Source: an uncultured Bacteroidales bacterium (lineage in GTDB: Bacteria; Bacteroidota; Bacteroidia; Bacteroidales; JAUNSR01). Taken from it: 64,000 nucleotides of DNA. This document shows positions 2,481-54,043 of this stretch, piece by piece (position 1 is the stretch's first letter; each line of letters begins with the position of its first letter). Below the pieces are notes generated by a model. The model was given only the letters and a program-made list of their open reading frames with translations, had not been told where the DNA came from and searched no databases. The stretch spans positions 62,001-126,000 of the forward strand of contig CAMTOJ010000001.1 in NCBI GenBank assembly GCA_947074145.1. The letters run 5' to 3'. The position numbers were made by a program, and so were the translations under genes.

Positions 2481-3254
2481 TTATCTTCCCACTGCACTCA
2501 TAAGTTTATTTATAGCTTCTGTAGAATTGATTGATTCTCTTAAAAGACGAATGAAAAACGATCCTATTATTGCCCCTCCTGAATAATTGTTAGCCTCATC
2601 AAAAGTTTCTTTATTTGAAATTCCGAAACCTATCATTCTCGGGTTTTTCAAATTCATTGAATTAATACGATTAAAATACTCTTTTGTCTCTATCGGAAAA
2701 CTATTTTTAGCTCCTGTTGTCGATGCTGTTGAAACCATATATATAAATCCCGAACTATGCTCATCGATAAGTTTTATTCTTTCTTCAGATGTCTCAGGTG
2801 TGATAAGCATTGTAAATCTCAAATCATATTTATCTCCAAGAGACTTGAAATTCTCCATATATTCGTCAAATGGAAGATCCGGAATAATAACACCGTCTAT
2901 CCCGCATTTTTTACAACATTGACAAAATCTTTCTATCCCAAATTGAAGTATGGGATTAAGATAACCCATAAGAATTAATGGTATTTGAGTCTTTTCTCTG
3001 ATATTCTCAAGCTGAGAAAACAAAAGGTTTAAGTTCATACCGTTTTTTAAAGCATCACCAGATGATTCCTGTATTACAACTCCGTCAGCCAAAGGATCAG
3101 AGAATGGTATACCAATCTCAATCATATCTGCTCCTTGTTTGTCAAGTTCAAGAATAATATCCCGTGTTGAATCCAATTTTGGGAAACCTGCGGTAAAATA
3201 CACTGATATTCTATCTTTTTTTTCTTTAGTAAATTCTGTATCTATTCTATTCAT
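2481..3254 (-). CDS. trpA: Tryptophan synthase alpha chain
   Basis: YFTAGFPKLDSTRDIILELDKQGADMIEIGIPFSDPLADGVVIQ; start set at MNRIDTEF, internal to the longer track ORF (2481..3299). Confidence 0.95.
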   Translation of the reverse strand: MNRIDTEFTKEKKDRISVYFTAGFPKLDSTRDIILELDKQGADMIEIGIPFSDPLADGVVIQESSGDALKNGMNLNLLFSQLENIREKTQIPLILMGYLNPILQFGIERFCQCCKKCGIDGVIIPDLPFDEYMENFKSLGDKYDLRFTMLITPETSEERIKLIDEHSSGFIYMVSTASTTGAKNSFPIETKEYFNRINSMNLKNPRMIGFGISNKETFDEANNYSGGAIIGSFFIRLLRESINSTEAINKLMSAVGR

Positions 3255-3903
3255 TTTCTTTGTTTTTAATCTGTGAAACAAATTGAGTGAGCAACTCAAT
3301 ATCTTTTAATCCCGGAGAGATCTCAAAACGGCTATTTAAGTCAACTCCTGAACATGCACTGTTTGAAACCTCATAAATCGATTCCGAATCTTCTGACCCT
3401 ATGCCTCCACTCAATAAAAATGGTGTATCCAGTCTATAAGCTTCAAGTAGACTCCAGTTAAATTTTTTACCCGATCCGCCATACTCCATGCATGGAGTGT
3501 CGAATACGAAATAATCAACCAGACCTTTATAAGCATCGCATTTTGCAAAGTCATCTTCCGATTTAATATTTAAAGCTTTAATCAGCTTAAATCCTTTTTC
3601 ATTTAATTCTTTGCAAAATTCAGGTGTTTCACTACCGTGGAGCTGCAAGTAATCAAGATGAAATTTCTTAGCGATTTTTTCTATATTATCAATCGAATCA
3701 TTTACAAAAACTCCTGTTTTCTTTGCTCTCAGCCTATCTATATTATCGAAAAAATCTTTTTTGTCTGAAATCTTATCAATAATATATCTTGGAGATTTGG
3801 GATAAAATATCATACCTATTAAATCAACTCCAATATTATCAACCATTCTCATATTGTCGATATATGCCAATCCACAAACCTTTATTACCATTTTATGAGT
3901 CAT
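3247..3903 (-). CDS. trpF: Phosphoribosylanthranilate isomerase
   Basis: KVCGLAYIDNMRMV, YLQLHGSETPEFC, FLLSGGIGSEDS...GVDLNSRFEISPGLKD. Confidence 0.95.
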   Translation of the reverse strand: MTHKMVIKVCGLAYIDNMRMVDNIGVDLIGMIFYPKSPRYIIDKISDKKDFFDNIDRLRAKKTGVFVNDSIDNIEKIAKKFHLDYLQLHGSETPEFCKELNEKGFKLIKALNIKSEDDFAKCDAYKGLVDYFVFDTPCMEYGGSGKKFNWSLLEAYRLDTPFLLSGGIGSEDSESIYEVSNSACSGVDLNSRFEISPGLKDIELLTQFVSQIKNKENE

Positions 3904-4730: not shown

Positions 4731-5726
4731 TTATCTTGATAATTCAACAAATTTCTTAAACACACTTTTGGCCTTTCCACTATCTATAGATTCTTTTGCA
4801 ATTTCAATACATTCCTCTACTTCTTTATCCGGAAGAAAAGTTTGTATAGCATAGGCCGAATTGACAAGTACTGCATTTCTTTGAGCCTTTTCGGCTGTTC
4901 CTGAAAGTACTCTATCAAAAATTGAGGAAGCCTCTTCAATGGTATCTCCACCGAAAAGATCAATTTCATGACATTTCTCCAATCCTATCATCTCGGGCGT
5001 TAAGATAGTTTCTTTCTTATTATTTATAAGTTTAAACTCACCTGTAAGAGATATCTCATCATATCCGTCAAGACTGTGAACTATACAATATGGATTTGAG
5101 TCTTGTTGAAAAAGATAATTGTAAAGACGAGCCATTTTTAGATTGTAAACACCCAATAATTTTCTTGTCGGCATGCCCGGATTAACAAGAGGTCCAAGCA
5201 TATTGAAAAATGTTCTTACTCCTAATTCCTTTCTTATCGGAGCAACGCTTTTCATGATAGGATGAAAAAAAGGAGCATGTAGATAAGTGAAACCGCATTG
5301 ATCCATAATTCTTCTTAGATCATCATTATTGTTTTTAAATTTCACTCCGTGAAACTCAAGAACATTTGATGCTCCACTTACCGAGGTTGCTGCATAATTA
5401 CCATGTTTAATGACCGGAAAACCTGCTCCCGCAACTATAAATGATGAGCATGTTGAAATATTAAAAGTATTCTTATTGTCGCCTCCTGTTCCAACAATGT
5501 CTACCGCATTGTAATCGGAAAGATCCAGTTTTACACATGTTTCAAGTAGCGCGTCTCTAAAGCCTGCCAGTTCATCAAGAGTTATTCCTCTCATCTGAAA
5601 AACAGTCATAAAGGCTGTAATCTGTGCTGTGGAATATTCACCGTTGCCAATTTTTAAAAGTGTCTGACAAGCATCCTCTCTTGTCATTGTCTCACGGTTA
5701 AAAAGTGAGTATAATAGATTTTTCAT
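4731..5726 (-). CDS. trpD: Anthranilate phosphoribosyltransferase
   Basis: DIVGTGGDNKNTFNISTCSSFIVAGAGFPVIKHGN; 331 aa, no fused amidotransferase domain. Confidence 0.96.
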   Translation of the reverse strand: MKNLLYSLFNRETMTREDACQTLLKIGNGEYSTAQITAFMTVFQMRGITLDELAGFRDALLETCVKLDLSDYNAVDIVGTGGDNKNTFNISTCSSFIVAGAGFPVIKHGNYAATSVSGASNVLEFHGVKFKNNNDDLRRIMDQCGFTYLHAPFFHPIMKSVAPIRKELGVRTFFNMLGPLVNPGMPTRKLLGVYNLKMARLYNYLFQQDSNPYCIVHSLDGYDEISLTGEFKLINNKKETILTPEMIGLEKCHEIDLFGGDTIEEASSIFDRVLSGTAEKAQRNAVLVNSAYAIQTFLPDKEVEECIEIAKESIDSGKAKSVFKKFVELSR

Positions 5727-5741
5727 ATGATGTTATCCTCC

Positions 5742-7205
5742 CTACAATTTATAGTTATTTACATTGGCAACATGTTGTGCCATATCTATTGCACTACAGA
5801 GTGCACCTAACTTGTTGTTTACCTCTTCAAGTTCAGATTGAGGATTCGATTTGGCAACAACACCTGCTCCTGCCTGGAAGTATAAAGTATTATCTTTACT
5901 TAAAAAACTTCTGATAGTGATAGCCTGATTTATATCGCCATCAAGGCCAATATAACCGATACATCCACCATAGAAACCTCTTGATTGTGGTTCATACTCA
6001 CCAATCAACTGTAAAGCTTTCACTTTAGGAGCACCCGAAAGAGTTCCTGCAGGGAAAGTATCCATAAACGCTCTCATTGGGTTTTCCTTATTTTTAATGA
6101 GTCCTGTTACTCTTGATACGATATGAATTACATGAGAATAGTATTGAAGATCTTTATATCTGCTCACTTTTACTTCCGTTGCATTTCTTGAAAGGTCATT
6201 ACGAGCCAAATCAACAAGCATAACATGTTCGGCGTTCTCTTTTGGATCGTTAAGAAGTTTTTCAGATATCACCTGATCTGTTTCTTCATCTCCGCTTCTT
6301 CGGAATGTTCCCGCAATTGGATCTATATAAGCAGTGCTTCCTTTAATTCTGAAGTGTGTTTCGGGAGATGATCCGAATATGCGATATGATCCGAAATCAA
6401 AATAAAAAAGATATGGGGAAGGATTGACAGAGCGCAATGTTCGATAAACATTAAAATCATCACCAAGAAAATCTTGTTCAAATCGACGTGACAAAACTAT
6501 TTGAAATACATCACCTCTTTTACAATGATAAATACCTTTTTCTACAATATTTCTGAATTGATCATCGGTCAGATTAGTTCTCTTCTCTCCAACTAAAGAA
6601 AATCCGAATAGATCAAGATTATTATTCTCAAGGTCTTTTATCACCTTTTCAATATTAGATGTTTCTCCATTGCATAAATTTTCAACAAGATACATCTCGT
6701 TTCTGAACATATCCATCACTATTACATATCTATAATAGATATAATTCATCTGAGGAATATCTTTGCAGTTTTCTACCGCTGGATTAAACTTTACAGGTTC
6801 AACATAGCTTACGGCATCGTAACTTGTAAATCCAAAAAGTCCGTTAACTCCTGTTGGATTCGATTCCTGTATTTCCCCCAATCTACCCTGCTTAGTTGAG
6901 TTTGATTCGGTTTTGAAAGAATCTGTAAATCTCTTAAAGGCATCATAAACAGTGTTGGTTGATTCAATCTTTTCTCTTGTCGTTTTACCATCAGGATAAT
7001 CACATTCTATTTCTCCTTTATTAACACAAAACTTAGCAATTGGCGCAAATCCTATAAATGAAAAACTACTTTCAGGGGTGCGATATTCTGCTGATTCAAG
7101 AAGTGCTGATTCATGATAAAGATCTCTTATCTTTAGATACAACGATACCGGAGAATGCATATCGGAAAGTAATCGGCAACTATAATTTTTTATATTGTAT
7201 TCCAT
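5742..7205 (-). CDS. trpE: Anthranilate synthase component I
   Basis: Chorismate-binding motifs: IDPIAGTFRRSGDEETD, AEHVMLVDLARNDLSR, MRAFMDTFPAGTLSGAPKVKAL. Confidence 0.96.
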   Translation of the reverse strand: MEYNIKNYSCRLLSDMHSPVSLYLKIRDLYHESALLESAEYRTPESSFSFIGFAPIAKFCVNKGEIECDYPDGKTTREKIESTNTVYDAFKRFTDSFKTESNSTKQGRLGEIQESNPTGVNGLFGFTSYDAVSYVEPVKFNPAVENCKDIPQMNYIYYRYVIVMDMFRNEMYLVENLCNGETSNIEKVIKDLENNNLDLFGFSLVGEKRTNLTDDQFRNIVEKGIYHCKRGDVFQIVLSRRFEQDFLGDDFNVYRTLRSVNPSPYLFYFDFGSYRIFGSSPETHFRIKGSTAYIDPIAGTFRRSGDEETDQVISEKLLNDPKENAEHVMLVDLARNDLSRNATEVKVSRYKDLQYYSHVIHIVSRVTGLIKNKENPMRAFMDTFPAGTLSGAPKVKALQLIGEYEPQSRGFYGGCIGYIGLDGDINQAITIRSFLSKDNTLYFQAGAGVVAKSNPQSELEEVNNKLGALCSAIDMAQHVANVNNYKL

Positions 7206-7236: not shown

Positions 7237-8418
7237 CTATTTTGAGAAATGATTCAGATAAGTGTCCATATCTTTGTCGCCTCTTCCCGAAACTGTAAGT
7301 ACCACAACTTCATCTTTTTCGAATTTCATCTTTTCAAGTGCTGCAAGAGCATGAGCTGATTCAAGAGCAGGAATTATACCTTCAAGTCTTGTAAGATCAA
7401 GAGCAGCTTTTAATGCTTCATCATCTGTTACTGCATACACTTTCATTCTTCCCGTTTTAAATAAATGAGAATGTAGAGGACCTACACCCGGATAATCCAG
7501 TCCTGCCGAGATGCTATATGGTTCTATAATTTGACCATCATTATCTTGCATTAAAAGTGTTTTAGCTCCATGAATTATACCTGTTGTTCCGCAATGCATC
7601 GTAGCTGCCGTCTCTCCCGAATCAATTCCAAGCCCGCCTGCTTCTACGGCTACCAATTTTGTTCTTTTTTCATTTAGATAATTAAGAAAGGTTCCTGCTG
7701 CGTTACTTCCGCCACCCACACAAGCTATTAGTGTGTCGGGATAATCTCTTCCCTCTTTCTCTTTCAATTGTTTTTTTATCTCCTGGCTTATAACAGATTG
7801 AAATTTAGCAACCATTTCAGGATAAGGATGAGGTCCCATTGTTGAGCCTATTATATAGTAAGTATCGCGTGGATTACAACACCAGTCGCGTATAGCTTCA
7901 TTTGTTGCATCTTTTAGCGTTTTGTTTCCCGACTGAACAGGAACAACTGTTGCGCCAAGCATTTTCATTTTTTCAACATTAGGGCGTTGACGAGCTACAT
8001 CCAATGCTCCCATATATACCACACATGGCATATCCATCAATGCACAAACCGTAGCAGTTGCTACTCCATGCTGTCCGGCACCCGTTTCAGCAATTATTCT
8101 TGTTTTTCCCATTCTTTTCGCAAGAAGTATCTGACCAATTGTGTTGTTGATCTTATGTGCTCCGGTGTGATTAAGATCCTCTCTTTTCAGATATATCTTT
8201 GCTCCATACTTTTGAGAAAGACGATTAGCATAATATAATGGTGAAGGACGTCCTACATAATCTCGAAGAAGAGTTTCAAACTCTTTCTTGAAGTCATCAT
8301 CATCAATAGCCTCATAATAAGCTTTCTTTAAATTTTCCACATTAGATAGAAGAATTTCTGGAACGTAAGTTCCTCCGAATTCACCATAATACCCTTTTGA
8401 ATCTATTTTGATTTCCAT
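7237..8418 (-). CDS. trpB: Tryptophan synthase beta chain
   Basis: [52 protein letters not shown]. Confidence 0.97.
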
Positions 8419-8523: not shown

Positions 8524-8564
8524 AAAAAAAAAGGAAAGAGATTCGCAAGTTCGAATCTCTTTCC
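8524..8564 (-). terminator. trp attenuator terminator hairpin
   Basis: Minus-strand RNA GGAAAGAGAUUCG-AACUUG-CGAAUCUCUUUCC (13-bp perfect stem, 8564-8552 with 8545-8533) followed by U9 (8532-8524), located between the Trp leader ORF and trpB. Confidence 0.92.
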
Positions 8565-8617
8565 CTTTATTATCTTATATATAAATTAATCTATAAATTG
8601 GGATATGACGATATGAC

Positions 8618-8674
8618 TCACGACTTCAGAAGTTGTAAGCGCCACCACCATAGATTATTTATAGAATTATTCAT
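8618..8674 (-). CDS. trpL: trp operon leader peptide, 18 aa (MNNSINNLWWWRLQLLKS)
   Basis: Own minus-strand translation ATG AAT AAT TCT ATA AAT AAT CTA TGG TGG TGG CGC TTA CAA CTT CTG AAG TCG TGA: three consecutive Trp codons just upstream of the attenuator and trpB. Confidence 0.92.
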   Translation of the reverse strand: MNNSINNLWWWRLQLLKS

Positions 8675-8733: not shown

Positions 8734-8741
8734 CAAAAGTA
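8734..8741 (-). promoter_or_regulatory. Candidate Bacteroidetes -7 box for the trp transcript
   Basis: Minus-strand TACTTTTG matches TAnnTTTG, about 60 nt upstream of the leader ATG; no clear -33 TTG. Confidence 0.4.
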
Positions 8742-8861: not shown

Positions 8862-9731
8862 TTAATCATCAAAAAAAGATACAATATCGGCAAATACCTG
8901 TAATTTGCCATATTCATTCAAGATTTCATGCTTCATGCCACTATATCTTTTATTTGAGAAATTATAATAACCACTTTTTCTTAATAATGAAAAAGTTTTT
9001 TTTAATCCCCATTTACCTCCTACTACAATATCTTTTTTTCCTGTAATACTAAATATGGGTAAATCTTGATTTTGACAAAGGAAATGTTTTGTTTTTACTA
9101 ATTCTCTTATCGACTCCATGACTGTAAGACATGCATTATTGGTATATGGAAATCCGCATAGAGGATCTTTCATATATTCGAATAGATTTTTTTCATTGTA
9201 ACTAACCCATGTTATGTCGTTTCCATTTTTAATAAATTTTCGCAAAAGCATACTAAAATCTCTCTTTCCTTTGAAAAGAATTATGCAATGTGCAATGAAA
9301 ATACCTAATGGTGCTAATCTTTGATAAGGAACTGTTCCGCTTAAGATTAGTTTTTTTATAAGTGTATCATTTCTTTCAAGATATATACGTGCAAATACAG
9401 ATCCTAAAGAGTGACCTAACATATATAGATCTTTGCCAGGATTGAGTACTTTGAAATACTCTGAAACCATCACCAGATCTTCTATTACTGGTTTAAAGCC
9501 ATCCATATAGCCTAAAGTATATTTTCTGTCTATTGAGGCTCCATGCCCTCTATTATCACAGATAATTGCTGAATATCCTTTTTCATTCAAATATCGGCAT
9601 AATTCATAATATCGCTCTTTATGTTCTGCTTGTCCATGAATAAGCTGAACAAGAGCTTTTGGCTCCTCTATATCGAATAAGGCTACTGAAAGTCTGAGAC
9701 CATCTTTTGCAGTCAGAAAAAACTCCTTCAT
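8862..9731 (-). CDS. Alpha/beta hydrolase, monoacylglycerol lipase/lysophospholipase-like
   Basis: LIHGQAEHKERYYELCRYL, DNRGHGAS, MLGHSLGSVFARIY (nucleophile elbow GHSLG), MKHEILNE. Confidence 0.85.
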   Translation of the reverse strand: MKEFFLTAKDGLRLSVALFDIEEPKALVQLIHGQAEHKERYYELCRYLNEKGYSAIICDNRGHGASIDRKYTLGYMDGFKPVIEDLVMVSEYFKVLNPGKDLYMLGHSLGSVFARIYLERNDTLIKKLILSGTVPYQRLAPLGIFIAHCIILFKGKRDFSMLLRKFIKNGNDITWVSYNEKNLFEYMKDPLCGFPYTNNACLTVMESIRELVKTKHFLCQNQDLPIFSITGKKDIVVGGKWGLKKTFSLLRKSGYYNFSNKRYSGMKHEILNEYGKLQVFADIVSFFDD

Positions 9732-53323: not shown

Positions 53324-54043
53324 TTATAAGAATTTTTGCAAATCCTTAAGTTTTATGTATCCTTCATATATAGCTTTTCCGAAAATTACTGCCGGAATGC
53401 CATTCTCCTCCAGAATCTCGATATCTCTTATATTACTGATTCCTCCCGAAGCTATCAGATATATATCTGGAAACATTTGAAGCATCTCTTTATATAGAAT
53501 CAAAGATGGACCCTGAAGCATACCATCTTTGCTGATATCTGTACTAATCACTTTTCTTATACCTCTGTCAAAATAATTTTTGATAAACTTATCCCAATGA
53601 AGATCGGATCTCTCAAGCCATCCGCTAACTGATATATTTTTCCCTTTAACATCGGCTCCAAGAATAATTTTATTGTGTCCGTATTTCATAATCCAACTTG
53701 TAAATATCTCTGAATTTTTCACTGCAATACTTCCACCGGTTATCATATCGGCTCCACTACCAAAAGCGATATCAAGATCCTTATCACTTTTCAGACCACC
53801 ACCAAAATCAATGGTTAATGATGTATTGTTGGCAATCTTCTCAAGCACTTTCCAATTCACTATATGGCTTGCTTTTGCCCCATCAAGATCAACTAAGTGC
53901 AATCGTTTAATTCCATTGAATTCAAACTCCTTTGCTACTTCAAGCGGATCTTCATTATATATCTTCTTTGTTGAATAATCTCCCTGGGAAAGTCTTACAC
54001 ATTTTCCCTCTATTATATCAATTGCCGGAATTATCTCTATCAT
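53324..54043 (-). CDS. hisA: Phosphoribosylformimino-5-aminoimidazole carboxamide ribotide isomerase
   Basis: [24 protein letters not shown]...[11 protein letters not shown]...[12 protein letters not shown]...[14 protein letters not shown]. Confidence 0.96.

What the first reader, a model, noticed from the sequence alone, without database searches (positions are those of the whole stretch)
8524..8674. Complete trp transcription attenuator with a WWW leader peptide
The minus-strand leader encodes MNNSINNLWWWRLQLLKS* (8674-8618). Mutually exclusive pairings can be drawn by hand. Region 1 CUUACAACUU (8639-8630) pairs with region 2 AAGUCGUGAG (8626-8617). Region 2 extended, AAGUCGUGAGUC (8626-8615), pairs with region 3 GAUUCGAACUU (8557-8547), with small bulges. 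Region 3 lies in the 5' arm and loop of a perfect 13-bp terminator (8564-8533) followed by U9. A ribosome stalled on UGG-UGG-UGG (8650-8642) would mask region 1 and free region 2 to form the 2:3 antiterminator. This is the classical Trp attenuation logic in a Bacteroidetes operon. I recall a published 'Bacteroid-trp' RNA motif upstream of trp genes, so the class may be known; the pairing model here comes from this sequence.
Basis: partly seen in the sequence, partly recalled or inferred. Interest (0 to 1): 0.75.

Follow-up and report, generated by a model that had tools for sequence, protein, structure and literature searches.

The report
Tryptophan operon attenuator, rewired antiterminator
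This is a short RNA switch that probably turns tryptophan-making genes on when tryptophan runs out; switches of this general kind are known, but in this bacterial group the anti-stop pairing seems to grab the loop and far side of the stop hairpin, not the near side as in textbook cases.

Summary
On the minus strand a short ORF, MNNSINNLWWWRLQLLKS* (8674-8618), precedes a 13-17 bp hairpin with nine U's and a trpB-E-D-C-F-A operon. About 170 relatives across the Bacteroidota carry a WW/WWW leader plus a terminator, nearly all before a trp gene. The 1:2 hairpin covaries.

Among 67 Bacteroidales leaders, region 2 (GUCGURAG, over the leader stop codon) covaries with the terminator LOOP plus upper 3' ARM (CUYRCGAC): z = -8.2 against permuted partners, versus -1.3 for 5' arm + loop. 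In the window this is UCGUGAGU (8623-8616) with ACUUGCGA (8550-8543). The Flavobacteriales-like order does the same; Sphingobacteriaceae and several other families use the textbook 5' arm + loop.

Best reading: ribosome-stalling Trp attenuation with a loop/3'-arm antiterminator that must win during transcription. Rfam Bacteroid-trp (RF01692) matches at only 23.8 bits (cut-off 49) and models neither terminator nor antiterminator. Attenuation as such is known; the two architectures are the new part. I found no description of them, but most subscription papers and supplements were out of reach. Nothing was tested at the bench.

The parts
8734..8741 (-). Bacteroidota-type -7 promoter element TACTTTTG (TAnnTTTG)
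   Evidence: conserved in L006; TAnnTTTG lies in the 120 nt before the leader ATG in 47 of 66 Bacteroidales leaders against 4.8 expected
8618..8674 (-). leader peptide ORF MNNSINNLWWWRLQLLKS*
   Evidence: conserved WW(W) leaders in relatives
8642..8650 (-). three tandem Trp codons (UGG UGG UGG), inferred ribosome stall site
8630..8639 (-). region 1 CUUACAACUU, pairs with region 2 when no ribosome covers it
   Evidence: (1:2 covariation)
8616..8626 (-). region 2 AAGUCGUGAGU, overlaps the leader stop codon (UGA 8620-8618); core of the antiterminator UCGUGAGU = 8623-8616
8543..8550 (-). ACUUGCGA: terminator loop plus top of the 3' arm, proposed antiterminator partner of region 2 (8 pairs, 2 of them G-U)
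   Evidence: by homology to covarying pairs in 67 Bacteroidales leaders
8529..8568 (-). intrinsic terminator hairpin (13 perfect bp 8564-8533, 17 bp in all, 6-nt loop)
   Evidence: compensatory changes against L006
8524..8532 (-). U9 tract of the terminator
7237..8418 (-). trpB, first structural gene of the operon
   Evidence: NCBIfam TIGR00263, 605 bits
5742..7205 (-). trpE-like anthranilate synthase component I
   Evidence: best model TIGR00564, 413 bits, below its cut-off of 518; operon context
4731..5726 (-). trpD
   Evidence: TIGR01245, 302 bits
3913..4725 (-). trpC
   Evidence: best model NF001377, 252 bits, just below its cut-off of 260
3247..3903 (-). trpF
   Evidence: best model NF002298, 160 bits, below its cut-off of 215; operon context
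2481..3254 (-). trpA, last gene of the run
   Evidence: TIGR00262, 225 bits

Best explanation
A tryptophan-codon leader-peptide transcription attenuator of the trpBEDCFA operon. With enough Trp-tRNA the leader ribosome runs to the stop codon, which lies inside region 2, and covers it; the terminator hairpin then forms and transcription stops before trpB. Without translation, region 1 pairs with region 2 and the terminator also forms. When Trp-tRNA is short the ribosome stalls on UGG-UGG-UGG and covers much of region 1 but not region 2; region 2 (UCGUGAGU, 8623-8616) captures the terminator's loop and upper 3' arm (ACUUGCGA, 8550-8543) as they leave the polymerase, blocks the hairpin, and the operon is read. 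Shown by sequence: the elements, their conservation, the trp context, and 1:2 and 2:(loop+3' arm) covariation in the order. Inferred: that translation and stalling occur, that the pairing antiterminates, and, for the window's own copy, that it uses the same partner as its relatives.
For: Elements confirmed. Tandem-Trp leader plus terminator found upstream of trpB, trpE or trpD in nearly all of about 174 leaders (3 loci unresolved). Region 2 lies about 18 nt after the last Trp codon, and the stop codon falls on or within 12 nt of region 2 in 61 of 67 Bacteroidales leaders, the geometry the logic needs. Bacteroidales: cognate leader x (loop+3' arm) energy beats permuted partners, z = -8.2, 0 of 5000, while 5' arm + loop gives z = -1.3; in the scan of all 8-mer registers the top seven all lie on this one diagonal, z about 9 at best, repeated with another extraction at 7-mers; phylogenetically independent relative pairs 18 of 26, Wilcoxon P = 0.0016, against 11 of 24 for the 5' arm. 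Clear compensated cases: L136 GUUGCCGCUA x UAGCGGCGAC, L141 CUUCCUGU x ACAGGAAG, L119 UGUGAGU x ACUCACA, L128 UCGUGAAA x UUUCACGA. Window: best duplex with loop+3' arm -9.0, P = 0.023 against shuffled leaders; 5' arm + loop -7.8, P = 0.375. Nascent-chain energies: the antiterminator is favoured by a median 7.9 kcal/mol when its partner has just emerged.
Against: In the window the pairing has only 8 pairs, two of them G-U, and the one close relative with the same terminator (L006) is identical there, so there is no covariation within this sublineage. At equilibrium the full terminator wins (window -25.6 against -14.3; terminator favoured in 91% of Bacteroidales leaders) and overtakes after a median of 6 further nt, so antitermination must be kinetic. 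In 10 of 67 Bacteroidales leaders the 5' arm + loop duplex is better by more than 1 kcal/mol. The aligned nearest-neighbour count is only moderately better than slid registers. No expression data.
Confidence: 0.72

Rival explanations
1. Textbook attenuator: region 2 pairs with the terminator's 5' arm and loop (GAUUCGAACUU, 8557-8547).
For: It can be drawn and has the usual timing advantage. Sphingobacteriaceae and several other families do use 5' arm + loop (GAACAGC x GCUGUUC; GGCARCC x GGUUGCC), so this layout exists in the phylum.
Against: No covariation in the order to which the window belongs; chance-level complementarity in the window (P = 0.375); 4 kcal/mol weaker than the alternative when forced into the nascent fold (-10.3 against -14.3).
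Confidence: 0.15
2. Both partners are used: region 2 first touches the loop (ACUU) and can extend either way, so that the window is an intermediate between the two architectures.
For: In the window both duplexes are possible and share the loop bases; both architectures occur in one phylum.
Against: Same-genus relatives L113 and L114 are clearly loop+3' arm (-14.3 against -5.3; -13.2 against -8.3).
Confidence: 0.1
3. The hairpin is an ordinary terminator of the upstream gene (8862-9731, same strand), and the leader only helps trpB translation by reinitiation.
For: The upstream gene is on the same strand; leader reinitiation is proposed for Bacteroidetes at 11-14 bp spacing (PMC4833913).
Against: A Bacteroidota -7 element lies between that gene and the leader; the leader stop is about 200 nt from trpB; tandem Trp codons, 1:2 and 2:terminator pairings are conserved and occur almost only before trp genes.
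Confidence: 0.03

Closest known systems
Bacteroid-trp RNA motif, Rfam RF01692 (Weinberg et al. 2010, PMC2864571)
   Same: Upstream of trp genes in Bacteroidota; the window aligns over the whole model, with the AUG, the Trp codons and CAACUUC-AAGUCGU in register; a same-genus relative (L108) scores 44.0 bits.
   Different: Window 23.8 bits against a gathering score of 49. The Rfam structure has one hairpin and ends in the terminator's 5' arm; it models neither the terminator nor either antiterminator. The paper's main text only lists the motif as cis-regulatory.
E. coli-type trp leader attenuation (trpL regions 1-4; own knowledge)
   Same: Tandem Trp codons, protector 1:2, ribosome-position logic, intrinsic terminator.
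   Different: In E. coli region 2 pairs with region 3, the 5' arm of the terminator; here, and across Bacteroidales, region 2 pairs with the loop and the upper 3' arm. Leader sequence unrelated.
Actinobacterial trp attenuators (Seliverstov et al. 2005, PMC1262725)
   Same: Leader peptides with double or triple UGG, terminator and antiterminator before trp operons.
   Different: Described as classical, with gGCC-rGCy-GGCC triples; a different phylum.
Leader-peptide attenuators noted in Flavobacterium psychrophilum (PMC9723704; PMC6414381)
   Same: Same phylum; strong clues for leader-peptide attenuation before amino-acid operons; Bacteroid-trp noted before its trp operon.
   Different: No antiterminator pairing is given in the main texts; supplements were not available here.

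Membership tests
Leader-peptide (ribosome-mediated) trp transcription attenuator | short ORF with tandem regulatory codons of the pathway's amino acid | tested here: met
   WWW at 8650-8642, conserved
Leader-peptide (ribosome-mediated) trp transcription attenuator | intrinsic terminator between the leader ORF and the first trp gene | tested here: met
Leader-peptide (ribosome-mediated) trp transcription attenuator | protector hairpin 1:2 that sequesters the antiterminator strand | tested here: met
   MFE fold; covariation z up to 7.9 in Bacteroidales
Leader-peptide (ribosome-mediated) trp transcription attenuator | antiterminator exclusive with the terminator | tested here: met
   2:(loop+3' arm) supported by covariation in the order; in the window itself P = 0.023
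Leader-peptide (ribosome-mediated) trp transcription attenuator | readthrough depends on Trp-tRNA charging and on leader translation | not testable with these tools
   needs in vivo or in vitro transcription
E. coli-type layout (antiterminator = 2:3 with the terminator's 5' arm) | region 2 complementary to the 5' arm, with covariation | tested here: not met
   z = -1.3, chance-level in the window
Rfam RF01692 Bacteroid-trp | covariance-model score at or above the gathering score of 49 bits | tested here: not met
   23.8 bits, E = 3.9
Rfam RF01692 Bacteroid-trp | position before trp genes in Bacteroidota, Trp-codon hairpin in model register | tested here: met
   alignment

The most novel reading that the evidence does not exclude
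The Bacteroidota use two antiterminator architectures for the same Trp attenuator: Bacteroidales and a Flavobacteriales-like order capture the terminator's loop and descending 3' arm with a leader strand that mimics the ascending arm, while Sphingobacteriaceae and several other families use the textbook ascending arm plus loop. The switch has changed strand at least once while leader peptide, stall site and stop-codon geometry stayed the same, and the 3'-arm kind decides in the last few nucleotides of transcription.
Probability: 0.65. Interest if true: 0.55.

Novelty: new variant of a known kind. Interest (0 to 1): 0.42.

Why it matters
Trp attenuation is textbook, and the Bacteroidota motif has been in Rfam since 2010 without a switching model that I could find. 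The covariation gives a concrete, testable model for a dominant gut phylum and corrects the strand that a hand drawing suggests. An antiterminator that targets the loop and 3' arm leaves very little time (a median of about 6 nt of transcription in the energy estimate), so it is a good test case for kinetic RNA folding, RNA polymerase pausing and transcription-translation coupling in Bacteroidota. The same leader with two wirings allows a direct comparison of how such a switch is rewired in evolution.

Tried and rejected
Rfam scan: only a sub-threshold Bacteroid-trp match; the other weak families (Phe_leader on the opposite strand, sau-5971, frnS, miRNAs) are judged chance. Other RF01692 hits in the own genome (L001-L003, L005; E above 0.5) have no WW leader and were dropped. 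The leader x leader scan and the scans were spoiled by undefined values and were repeated. Nearest-neighbour pair counting on the alignment was only moderately informative, so an alignment-free cognate/swapped test was made. Sigma-70-type promoter scan: at chance level. Literature: no paper found that gives an antiterminator for Bacteroid-trp; subscription papers and supplements were out of reach.

Full report
What is there. On the minus strand, 8741-8524, lie a Bacteroidota -7 promoter element (TACTTTTG, 8741-8734), a leader ORF MNNSINNLWWWRLQLLKS* (8674-8618), a 1:2 hairpin, and a 13 bp (17 bp with the A-U base) terminator with U9, followed about 110 nt later by trpB and then trpE, trpD, trpC, trpF and trpA. 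The leader folds far better than shuffles (z = -7.2).

Relatives. RF01692 searches and TrpB searches brought leaders from the same genus, the same order and other orders of the class (with fetched stretches). After one uniform extraction and removal of one spurious ORF there were 67 Bacteroidales leaders, 42 from the order that holds G533, 47 from the order that holds G592, and 18 others. G592's TrpB is 89% identical to Mucilaginibacter, so that family (f160) is Sphingobacteriaceae by inference; G1063 of f169 is 85% identical to Lutibacter, so that order is Flavobacteriales-like. All but three of these leaders are followed by a trp gene: trpB (42) or trpE (23) in Bacteroidales plus one hit to trpD, trpE in nearly all of the Flavobacteriales-like order, trpD in the G592 order, trpE in the others. 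The three unresolved are L122, L176 and L194.

The pairing. For every leader the zone after the Trp codons was hybridised in silico to (a) the upper 5' arm plus loop and (b) the loop plus upper 3' arm of its own terminator, and to those of the other leaders. Bacteroidales: (a) -7.2 against -6.9 permuted, z = -1.3; (b) -10.6 against -8.6, z = -8.2, 0 of 5000 permutations. Flavobacteriales-like order: (a) z = -3.0, (b) z = -5.6. Against shuffled zones the split is clean: mean z for (a)/(b) is -0.3/-2.3 in Bacteroidales, -0.9/-2.8 in the Flavobacteriales-like order, -2.3/-0.3 in the G592 order and -2.3/-0.6 in the others. A scan of all registers of the leader against the terminator, with the two parts aligned separately, put GUCGUGAG x CUCACGAC and its neighbours on one diagonal at the top in Bacteroidales, UCGUGAA x AUCACGA in the Flavobacteriales-like order, and GAACAGC x GCUGUUC (5' arm + loop) in the mixed group; in the G592 order GGCAAAC x GGUUGCC is the most complementary register, with little variation to test. 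To limit the effect of shared ancestry, each leader was used once in a pair with its nearest relative: own partner better than swapped in 18 of 26 informative Bacteroidales pairs for (b) (Wilcoxon P = 0.0016), 11 of 24 for (a); 6 of 6 for (a) in the mixed group, where (b) also gave 5 of 5, so that small group is not decisive on its own.

The window's own copy. The nearest genome (L006, TrpB 93% identical) is unchanged at these positions but has compensated changes in the terminator stem. So the assignment of the window to the loop/3'-arm kind rests on homology to its order and on its genus mates L113 and L114, whose pairs are strong.

How it would work. Region 2 begins about 18 nt after the last Trp codon, and the stop codon falls on or near it in 61 of 67 Bacteroidales leaders. 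A ribosome at the stop codon covers region 2; a ribosome held at the Trp codons covers part or most of region 1 (assumed 3' reach about 13 nt from the A-site codon) and leaves region 2 free. Energy estimates along the growing RNA favour the antiterminator by a median of 7.9 kcal/mol when its partner has just emerged and the terminator by 5.8 when the hairpin is complete; the change comes after about 6 further nt. Pairing of region 2 with the loop and upper 3' arm crosses the lower terminator stem with no spare linker, so the two should exclude each other (inference). The antiterminator must therefore win kinetically, with the unpaired loop as a likely first contact (inference).

What is known. 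RF01692 was listed as a probable cis-regulatory motif in 2010 without discussion in the main text, was noted before the trp operon of F. psychrophilum, and leader-peptide attenuation was inferred for amino-acid operons there. B. thetaiotaomicron long 5' UTRs with short ORFs reminiscent of leader peptides have been reported in general terms. I found no description of an antiterminator for this motif. That antiterminators usually use the terminator's 5' arm is my own knowledge of the field, not a database result.

Verdict. Ordinary in kind, correct as an observation, wrong in one structural detail, and useful because the relatives give a specific, testable wiring and an unexpected split of that wiring within one phylum.

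Noticed in passing
window 5726-5742; G000:C4:96386-96937 (L299): trpG is absent from the trp operon; the genome has one trpG/pabA-type gene over the cut-off elsewhere, standing alone beside an electron-transfer-flavoprotein-like ORF. It may serve both anthranilate and aminodeoxychorismate synthase.
   Followed up: partly
L247 1-400 (G918:C26): Two complete Trp leader + terminator units in tandem before trpE (MQKINTIWWWQSKL and MLNNKINNWWWPVLTQYAGQSCYNII), a double attenuator.
   Followed up: no
L162, L192 and other f160 loci: In the Sphingobacteriaceae-like order the attenuator precedes trpD-trpF rather than trpE or trpB.
   Followed up: partly
L047, L052: Contigs labelled Opitutales (Verrucomicrobiota) carry TrpB 73-74% identical to the window's and a WW leader with a different GGACGG/CCGUCC repeat design; mis-binning or transfer.
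   Followed up: no
window 8730-8700 (minus): A hairpin near the presumed 5' end of the transcript (GUAUAUGAAAGA...UCUUCAUAUAU); L006 has a different sequence there that also looks able to form a hairpin.
   Followed up: no
window 8725-8618 (minus): An in-frame upstream ATG (8725) would give a 35-aa leader starting 16 nt after the start of the -7 element; it is not obviously conserved in L006, so the 8674 start is preferred.
   Followed up: partly
window 53796-53804 (minus): A second TGGTGGTGG, not within a short ATG ORF.
   Followed up: no
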